Origin: a virus
Length of the DNA: 21,156 bases
Direction: 5' to 3' (one strand)
IMG/VR virus record: IMGVR_UViG_3300017824_000068
Location: 1-21,156 of that record
A model generated the notes under the pieces. That model saw only the letters and a list, made by a program, of their open reading frames with translations. It did no database searches and was not told the DNA's origin. The position numbers and the translations under genes are program-made. The stretch's first letter is position 1. Every line of letters starts with the position of its first letter. Below are positions 1,546-2,661 of the stretch, piece after piece.

Positions 1546-1736
1546 GACTTAAAACAGATTCAGACGACCTACTAAAAGCCTTAACTCTGATTGTTATGAA
1601 CTACGAAGGTGGTATCAGTTATTCTGAAGTTTGGGAAATGTCGCATCGACAAAGAGAAGTTGCTATAGAGCAATTGATTAAAAAGAACGATGCCATCAAA
1701 GCATCTCAAGGCATAGCAACACAAAAACAATTATAA
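1494..1736 (+). CDS. -1 frame extension of the gp26-like protein (T-like domain)
   Basis: After a -1 slip at TTT TTC, translation resumes at 1494 (HRVLSTENPELIQ...) and adds 80 residues before TAA at 1734-1736, for a predicted 374-residue fusion with the gp26-like protein. The segment is hydrophilic and probably helical; its centre reads YEGGISYSEVWEMSHRQRE. A short helical domain reached only by frameshifting just before tail-fibre or tape-measure genes is the hallmark of lambda GT-type chaperones. T4 has gene 51, a hub assembly factor of about 249 residues, directly after gene 26; this extension lies in the matching place but is much shorter, so homology to gp51 is not claimed. An internal start at ATG 1596 would give only 46 residues and has no ribosome binding site. 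Confidence 0.75.
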   Translation, partial: HRVLSTENPELIQEHLGRLKTDSDDLLKALTLIVMNYEGGISYSEVWEMSHRQREVAIEQLIKKNDAIKASQGIATQKQL

Positions 1737-1752
1737 ACAATTAACACTTTAT

Positions 1753-1770
1753 AGACACTTCGTGTCTTTT
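1753..1770 (+). terminator. Weak hairpin terminator candidate
   Basis: AGACAC (1753-1758) and GTGTCT (1762-1767) form a 6-bp stem with a 3-nt loop, followed by a short T run to 1770. It lies 17 nt after the frameshift-extension stop, which suits an intrinsic terminator or mRNA 3'-end stabiliser, but the T run is short. Confidence 0.4.
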
Positions 1771-1840
1771 AAAACTGCATTCAATCGTTTCGTTTCACTC
1801 AACTCTTTCATTTGTTTTAAAGTTTTTTTGATATAAACTT

Positions 1841-2043
1841 ATCTCGATAGTGGAGTCATAATTCACCCTTGCGGGTGAAAAATAAGTCTCATCTCGATGA
1901 GTATCGTCATCTCTAACCCAGGTGCTATAAAGAGGTGGTGAGCCTTATCCCCTCATACACTACTGTCACGAATCTCACGGAAACCAATATAACCTGGTAG
2001 AGTTCAGTTATATTGACTGCAGGTTGCTTTTTCTCAGAGCCTG
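1841..2043. ncRNA. Candidate structured noncoding RNA, strand unknown
   Basis: This part of the 499-base gene-free stretch is visibly richer in G+C than the flanking genes and full of complementary segments. CGATA (1845-1849) pairs with TATCG (1902-1906) and encloses two hairpins: TTCACCC/GGGTGAA (1862-1868/1873-1879) and CTCAT/ATGAG (1888-1892/1897-1901), a possible three-way junction. A second domain is closed by CTCTA + CCAGGT (1911-1915, 1918-1923) pairing with ACCTGG + TAGAG (1992-1997, 1998-2002). Within it GTGAG (1938-1942) can pair with CTCAC (1974-1978). CAATATA (1985-1991) can pair with TATATTG (2009-2015), giving an H-type pseudoknot. CAGG/CCTG (2020-2023/2040-2043) ends the region. 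I recognise no known family; tRNA, tmRNA and hammerhead cores were looked for and not found. Either strand could be transcribed as the 3' end of a flanking operon. Confidence 0.45.
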
Positions 2044-2235
2044 ATCATTTAATACTGTTTGTCGTTTGTCTGTATTTCATTTAACGCCATACATTCCAGA
2101 ATCTCGCACCGTGTTTAACGGATTGTCAAGGAAATCGATATTATGTGCCTCGATGGGGTGGTGTATGGACCTATGTGTAGCCTTGTGTGTTTTTTATTGC
2201 CAGGTGTGCCGTAATGTTTGCTGTTGCAAAAATAG
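2044..2235. other. Rest of the intergenic stretch, nothing recognised
   Basis: Between the structured core and the GIY-YIG gene I see no convincing gene, tRNA or terminator. A 79-codon plus-strand reading frame runs through here from 2066 to 2305, but it overlaps the 3' end of the GIY-YIG gene, has no ribosome binding site and looks random (Cys-rich). A TTGACA on the minus strand (2124-2129) has no -10 at a suitable distance. Confidence 0.5.
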
Positions 2236-2661
2236 TTATCTATCTTTTAATGCTTCTTTTAAAATTTGTGAACCGCCGACTCTAACGTTGATAATTCCGT
2301 TGTAATAATCGTCGCTCAGTAATACTTTGTGTTTGAATTGTAGTTCTGCTTCAATGTAACTTGCTACTCCTCTACTAGGGCAATATTCTAATATCTCTCT
2401 AGTAAATTGGTCTTCGCCTAGTTCCTTAACATCTTCTTGTAGATGGTCACTACTGCCCCAATAGTCTCGCCAGTCACTTTCTTTAGTGCCACGTCTTTTG
2501 TTCTTTCTGCCTTTTAAAGGAGGTTTGGTCGTTTTGAATTTGGCAAGTTTTTTACCAATATACTTCATACCATTTTGATTGTTTGTGATTAAGTACACAA
2601 ATGCTTCGCAATCTTCCGGAAGTGTGTCTACTACTTTTCCCTTGTAAACCCAATCGCTCAT
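2236..2661 (-). CDS. GIY-YIG domain endonuclease, SegE-like
   Basis: A 141-residue protein with the GIY-YIG signature near the N-terminus: FVYLITNNQNGMKYIGKK (residues 22-39), with 'VYL' and 'YIG' replacing the eponymous triplets. A basic stretch follows (residues 48-59), and EAELQFKHKVL further on fits the helix carrying the catalytic Glu (E104 or E106). The length matches small stand-alone GIY-YIG proteins of T4-like phages such as the SegE-like group, which are often homing endonucleases. The start overlaps the gp46 stop by one base (TAATG), so it is translationally coupled and is last in the 55-47-46 operon. There is no intron around it. It could be a domesticated repair or recombination nuclease rather than a selfish element. 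Confidence 0.75.
   Translation of the reverse strand: MSDWVYKGKVVDTLPEDCEAFVYLITNNQNGMKYIGKKLAKFKTTKPPLKGRKNKRRGTKESDWRDYWGSSDHLQEDVKELGEDQFTREILEYCPSRGVASYIEAELQFKHKVLLSDDYYNGIINVRVGGSQILKEALKDR

What the first reader, a model, noticed from the sequence alone, without database searches (positions are those of the whole stretch)
1841..2043. Structured RNA candidate with a three-way junction and an H-type pseudoknot
A G+C-rich island in an AT-rich genome contains seven complementary segments that fit into one fold: a closing stem 1845-1849/1902-1906 around two hairpins, an 11-bp stem with a 2-nt bulge (1911-1923/1992-2002), and a pseudoknot stem 1985-1991/2009-2015 that can extend to 9 bp only by breaking 2 bp of the former. 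This could be a switch, a 3'-end protector against nucleases, a regulatory RNA or a remnant of a self-splicing element. The GIY-YIG gene nearby is suggestive but proves nothing.
Basis: partly seen in the sequence, partly recalled or inferred. Interest (0 to 1): 0.7.

Follow-up and report, generated by a model that had tools for sequence, protein, structure and literature searches.

The report
Conserved structured RNA in marine phages
Next to a nuclease gene in uncultured marine phages lies a real, strongly conserved folded RNA of about 350 bases, of which only a 103-base piece of distant bacterial relatives was known before (Rfam Methylobacterium-1, function unknown); its job is still open, and two of its short segments change together in an unusual way.

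Summary
Homologs occur in >100 uncultured viral contigs. On 39 distinct sequences an 81-pair model is 88% paired (slid controls 32-46%), with 44 compensatory pairs (slid controls 13-19). I add a second crossing helix (D), a 5' domain and a covarying hairpin with an almost invariant 16-nt loop. G-U/A-C balance, A-rich loops and helix D place the RNA on the minus strand (about 2182 to 1836), downstream of a SegE-like GIY-YIG gene. It is noncoding, one copy per record. Rfam RF01712 "Methylobacterium-1" is a 103-nt fragment of the same class: two alphaproteobacterial RNAs found by my phage-based model score 104 and 94 bits with RF01712 in the same register. The window itself does not reach RF01712, so this is a phage branch with added domains. 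Bacterial copies sit near integrase genes. Strangest feature: two direct repeats, identical in 39/39 sequences at 7 columns that vary between lineages, with no third partner found. Best guess: a trans-acting noncoding RNA of mobile elements; function unproven.

The parts
1836..2182 (-). Structured noncoding RNA (5' end near 2182, 3' end near 1836; ends inferred from conservation, not mapped)
   Evidence: Conserved in >100 viral contigs; 81-pair model with 303 compensatory cells against 89 shuffled and 23-64 slid; indels mostly not multiples of 3
2050..2182 (-). 5' domain: stems 2162-2168/2087-2093, 2150-2154/2134-2138, 2119-2121/2109-2111, 2072-2076/2051-2055; 2130-2133/2094-2097 weaker
   Evidence: 98.8, 90.8, 100, 100 and 75.7% of cells paired
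2020..2043 (-). P1 hairpin: 4-bp stem CAGG/CCUG with a nearly invariant 16-nt loop CUCUGAGAAAAAGCAA
   Evidence: 100% of cells paired, 3 of 4 pairs compensatory; strongest covariation in the larger set; most loop columns invariant or nearly so in the 60-sequence alignment
1985..2015 (-).
   Evidence: 7/7 pairs with both-side changes, 93.9% paired; >=5 pairs in 90% of 59 diverse members against 39% when strands are swapped between members
1911..2002 (-). Helix B 1998-2002/1911-1915 plus GGU/ACC (1992-1994/1921-1923), crosses A
   Evidence: 4/5 outer pairs compensatory; >=6 pairs in 66% natural against 24% swapped; middle 3 pairs not conserved
1938..1978 (-). Helix C 1974-1978/1938-1942
   Evidence: 100% paired, 3/5 pairs compensatory; strong covariation in the larger set; >=5 pairs 75% natural against 23% swapped
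1932..1954 (-). Helix D 1951-1954/1932-1935, crosses C (second pseudoknot)
   Evidence: 86.5% paired in the close set, only one-side changes there; in 60 diverse members >=5 pairs in 97% against 76% swapped; exists only if G-U is allowed on the minus strand
1888..1901 (-). Twin repeat R1 (window CUCAUCGAGAUGAG)
   Evidence: Identical to R2 in 39/39 sequences at 7 columns that vary between lineages; constant differences kept
1838..1850 (-). Twin repeat R2 (window CUAUCGAGAUAAG)
   Evidence: As R1; a matched core of >=7 nt found in 58% of 113 members against 2.7% of chimeras between different core types
1862..1879 (-). Hairpin F between the two repeats
   Evidence: 79% of cells paired
1753..1821 (+). 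Two conserved hairpins (1814-1821/1768-1775 and 1753-1758/1762-1767), probably terminators of the + strand baseplate operon, not part of the RNA
   Evidence: 96.5 and 100% paired; each followed by a T run on the + strand; the simple terminator scan did not list them, so the role is inference
2236..2661 (-). SegE-like GIY-YIG endonuclease gene directly upstream of the RNA on the same strand
   Evidence: Pfam PF19835 SegE_GIY-YIG E 5.8e-34; linked in 50/64 loci fetched by an RNA sequence pattern only

Best explanation
A single-copy, trans-acting noncoding RNA of about 350 nt encoded on the minus strand of a T4-like marine phage, belonging to a class of mobile-element RNAs of which Rfam's Methylobacterium-1 is a 103-nt fragment. 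Shown by sequence comparison: conservation, extensive base pairing with two crossing helix pairs, an almost invariant 16-nt loop on a covarying stem, noncoding evolution, and homology of the class to RF01712. Inferred: it is transcribed behind or together with gp55-gp47-gp46-segE, folds into a compact pseudoknotted body that presents the invariant loop and the twin repeats, and works in infection as the RNA part of an RNP, the loop binding something common to all members and the twins binding a lineage-specific partner in two copies.
For: Conservation in the intergenic region. Covariation with shuffle and slide controls and, in the larger set, pairs that change between all four Watson-Crick types. 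Strand: G-U 47.5 against A-C 26.3 in supported pairs and unpaired A 0.40 against T 0.22 on minus; helix D only on minus; RF01712 matches on the same strand. Class link: L248 and L250 score 104.5 and 94.1 bits with RF01712 (cut-off 40) and were found by model R1 in the same register; L223 scores 49.9. One copy in each of 12 viral records with a match, up to 268 kb. Downstream genes vary while the RNA stays. Bacterial copies lie near tyrosine or serine recombinase genes.
Against: No transcript data exist here, so expression, ends and strand in vivo are unproven. No minus-strand promoter-like site was found between 1650 and 2700. Single-sequence folding is not more stable than shuffles. The trans role is inferred from variable neighbours; the steady upstream segE gene in most phage members would also fit a cis role.
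Confidence: 0.6

Rival explanations
1. A cis-acting 3' untranslated element of the gp46/segE messenger: the fold stabilises or processes the end of the operon transcript, or regulates segE.
For: Directly downstream of segE on the same strand in 50 of 64 independent loci, often within 0-60 nt of the alignment boundary.
Against: In L126 segE lies on the opposite strand, and about a dozen further pattern loci and the bacterial loci have no segE next to the RNA by this ORF scan (L101 may be an exception, a 142-aa + ORF lies upstream). An almost invariant loop and a 350-nt architecture exceed what a 3'-end protector needs.
Confidence: 0.17
2. RNA partner of the SegE-like nuclease: an RNA that guides or restrains the endonuclease (the resemblance to HEARO/omega RNAs of IscB is from my own knowledge, a lead only), the twins being a specificity element.
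For: Linkage to segE; recombinase genes near the RNA in the bacterial islands examined; twin repeats vary by lineage.
Against: Members exist without segE nearby; segE relatives occur in many isolates, and the six isolate or single-cell records searched have no RNA match; the twin core does not recur in its contig beyond chance (2 against 2.2).
Confidence: 0.08
3. DNA-level element (cruciforms or protein-binding repeats) rather than an RNA.
For: Twin direct repeats would suit a DNA-binding protein; hairpins could form in DNA.
Against: Crossing helices and the G-U excess on one strand point to RNA; the class is modelled as RNA in Rfam.
Confidence: 0.05

Closest known systems
Methylobacterium-1 RNA (Rfam RF01712; Weinberg et al. 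2010, PMC2864571)
   Same: Same strand, order and register: upstream hairpin, P1-like hairpin with an A-rich loop, helix A, then the ACCGU segment that starts helix C. L223, L248 and L250 match RF01712; L248 and L250 were found by model R1 without being in it.
   Different: RF01712 covers 103 nt and ends at the 5' strand of C; it lacks B, C, D and the twin-repeat module. Its P1 loop is short (GAGAAAUAAC in L248/L250) against CUCUGAGAAAAAGCAA. The window does not reach it even at E 10.
GOLLD and ROOL RNAs (PMC12286853)
   Same: Large ornate noncoding RNAs of phages and prophages with unknown function.
   Different: No Rfam match; no tRNA in the window; shorter; oligomerisation untested.
Abundant ~800-nt noncoding RNA of Vibrio phage ICP1 (PMC7567579)
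   Same: Long orf-less transcript of a lytic phage, function unknown.
   Different: Longer; not compared directly here; none of 50,697 phage records showed the conserved loop at the sensitivity used.

Membership tests
Methylobacterium-1 RNA (RF01712) | Covariance-model score at or above the curated 40 bits | tested here: not met
   Window: no match up to E 10. Met by L223, L248, L250 of the same class. So I file the window in the wider class, not in RF01712 as curated.
Methylobacterium-1 RNA (RF01712) | Order: hairpin, P1-like hairpin, helix A, CCGU segment | tested here: met
   Window stem 2072-2076/2051-2055, P1 2020-2043, A 1985-2015, UUCCGUGAG; same register in L248/L250
Methylobacterium-1 RNA (RF01712) | P1 loop of the GAGAAAUUA kind | tested here: not met
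   Window loop is CUCUGAGAAAAAGCAA; shares GAGAAA only
GOLLD / ROOL | Match to the Rfam models | tested here: not met
GOLLD / ROOL | Self-assembly into RNA cages | not testable with these tools
   needs mass photometry or cryo-EM
Group I intron | Rfam intron match and interruption of a gene | tested here: not met
   the element lies between convergent genes
manA / wcaG marine phage RNAs | Match to the Rfam models | tested here: not met
   no match at the gathering cut-off or up to E 10

The most novel reading that the evidence does not exclude
The twin repeats are a lineage-specific address: the RNA docks two copies of, or pairs with, a partner whose recognition sequence changes quickly (host RNA or protein, or a phage protein), making this a specificity system carried by phages and islands and unlike any described phage RNA.
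Probability: 0.12. Interest if true: 0.9.

Novelty: new variant of a known kind. Interest (0 to 1): 0.62.

Why it matters
A 103-nt orphan motif from 2010 turns out to be one piece of a larger pseudoknotted RNA class found mainly in uncultured marine phages and also near integrase genes in bacteria. This gives the class a strand, extent, structural model and genomic setting, and points to bacterial members for experiments. The twin repeats that change in step give a sharp, testable clue to a sequence-specific partner.

Tried and rejected
Single-sequence folding: uninformative. Blastn of phage isolates with whole RNAs and with the loop: none. Plasmids: chance-level matches; one alphaproteobacterial plasmid read, only 17 bits; the Vibrio plasmid hits were not opened. 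RF01712 in 297 genomes of the order of Alsobacter: none. L228 and L251 look like chance matches in reading frames. Third partner for the twins by mutual information and elsewhere in the contigs: none. Automatic RNAalifold structure for model R1 missed helix A, so R1 is mostly a sequence profile. The first crude swap test of helix D was inconclusive; the anchored one is used. My loop regex was wrong (one A too few) and is not used as evidence; one search failed on the same kind of error. The longest-repeat test is not significant per sequence; the evidence for the twins is their fixed position and the chimera control.

Full report
Observation. Folding of the window alone gives no excess stability on either strand, so the sequence by itself could not decide. 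The Rfam scan at curated cut-offs is empty and up to E 10 gives only four weak matches.

Homologs. A search with the GIY-YIG protein returned 80 viral loci. The intergenic region aligned to about 30 of them over some 400-570 nt, mostly at 70-87% identity. With a profile, all but two of the pattern loci match. Average identity to the window falls to about 50-60% in the far clusters.

Structure. On 39 distinct close sequences (alignment A2) I counted an explicit 81-pair model, with pseudoknots, on the minus strand: 88.0% of cells paired (shuffled 78.9; slid 32-46), 44 pairs with changes on both sides (26.4; 13-19), 303 compensatory cells (88.8; 23-64). The model was derived from the window, so it is expected to beat slid versions somewhat for that reason; the compensatory counts are the stronger evidence. 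In diverse members A, B and C exceed strand-swapped controls, and D does so in the anchored test. Pairs that change between all four Watson-Crick types appear in P1 and C in the larger set.

Strand. G-U against A-C in supported pairs is 47.5 to 26.3 on minus; unpaired residues are 40% A and 22% T on minus; D needs G-U on minus and vanishes on plus; RF01712 matches on that strand. I take the RNA to be on the minus strand; this is a comparative inference.

Not coding. 325 of 366 indels in the RNA part are not multiples of three, and open runs are near shuffled lengths.

Setting. The minus strand carries late sigma factor gp55, gp47, gp46 (SbcD/SbcC-like) and a SegE-like GIY-YIG gene, then the RNA; the + strand carries a baseplate gene that converges on it. 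Conserved hairpins at 1753-1821 are followed by T runs on the + strand and are probably terminators of that operon (inference). Among RNA loci fetched by pattern and with 500 nt upstream, 50 of 64 have the GIY-YIG gene upstream on the RNA strand. Each of 12 viral records with a match has one copy. Melnitz, HTVC008M, three further isolates and a single-cell virus record show no match.

Link to a known motif. Bacterial loci L223 and L227 match RF01712 with 49.9 and 36.4 bits on the RNA strand. Model R1, built from phage and a few bacterial members (L223, L227, L209, L202, L235), was then run on 385 alphaproteobacterial genomes and found L248 and L250, which were not used to build it. These score 104.5 and 94.1 bits with RF01712 in the same register. 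Hence RF01712 is a fragment of this class. The window does not reach RF01712, so it is not filed as a member of that family as curated.

Bacterial settings. Tyrosine integrase genes lie near L223/L256, L252, L253, L255 and L257, and a serine recombinase gene by L235, consistent with islands or prophages. One Polynucleobacter contig carries two copies.

Twin repeats. R1 and R2 flank hairpin F. In 39/39 sequences they agree at 7 columns that vary between lineages (R1 offset -2 with R2 offset -1, and offsets 1, 2, 3, 4, 9, 10; one further flanking column agrees in 37/39), while fixed differences, an inserted base and G against A, are kept. This argues against simple homogenisation. In 113 members a matched core of 7 or more is found in 58%, against 2.7% of chimeras between different core types, with about 20 distinct cores. 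No internal third partner and no enrichment in the contig. I have no demonstrated mechanism for this; a partner bound in two copies is my best guess.

Function. Steps shown: RNA structure, strand (comparative), class, setting. Steps inferred: transcription, trans action, RNP, partner. Literature found by search: Weinberg 2010 (PMC2864571) for the fragment; PMC12286853 and PMC7567579 for other large phage RNAs of unknown function.

Noticed in passing
L037, L039, L041, L045, L048, L051, L052, L071, L072, L078, L080, after the GIY-YIG gene: Another intergenic region of several hundred nt at the same place with the same twin-repeat/hairpin 3' module (ACTCACATGAAG ... AATCTACATGAAG, seen by eye) but a different core; model R1 does not match them, some match the profile weakly at its 3'-module end. 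Possibly a second RNA type sharing a module.
   Followed up: partly
L042, L047, L054, L073, L074, L076, L077, L079, after the GIY-YIG gene: Instead of the RNA, a short apparently coding stretch beginning ATGGC follows a conserved AT-rich leader.
   Followed up: no
L255 9527-10282 (-) and L257 7985-8614 (+): Two RNA loci in different bacteria share a protein with the motif IRLWFEFYKLA (or IWFEFYKLA), no Pfam match.
   Followed up: no
window 2236-2661: The SegE-like GIY-YIG protein is annotated as NAD synthetase in many phage records (phrog_447), apparently a propagated misannotation.
   Followed up: no
window 1689-1705: Terminator-like hairpin with T run on the minus strand, inside the end of the + strand gene; could end the RNA transcript, but 0.7 such sites are expected by chance in the stretch scanned.
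   Followed up: no
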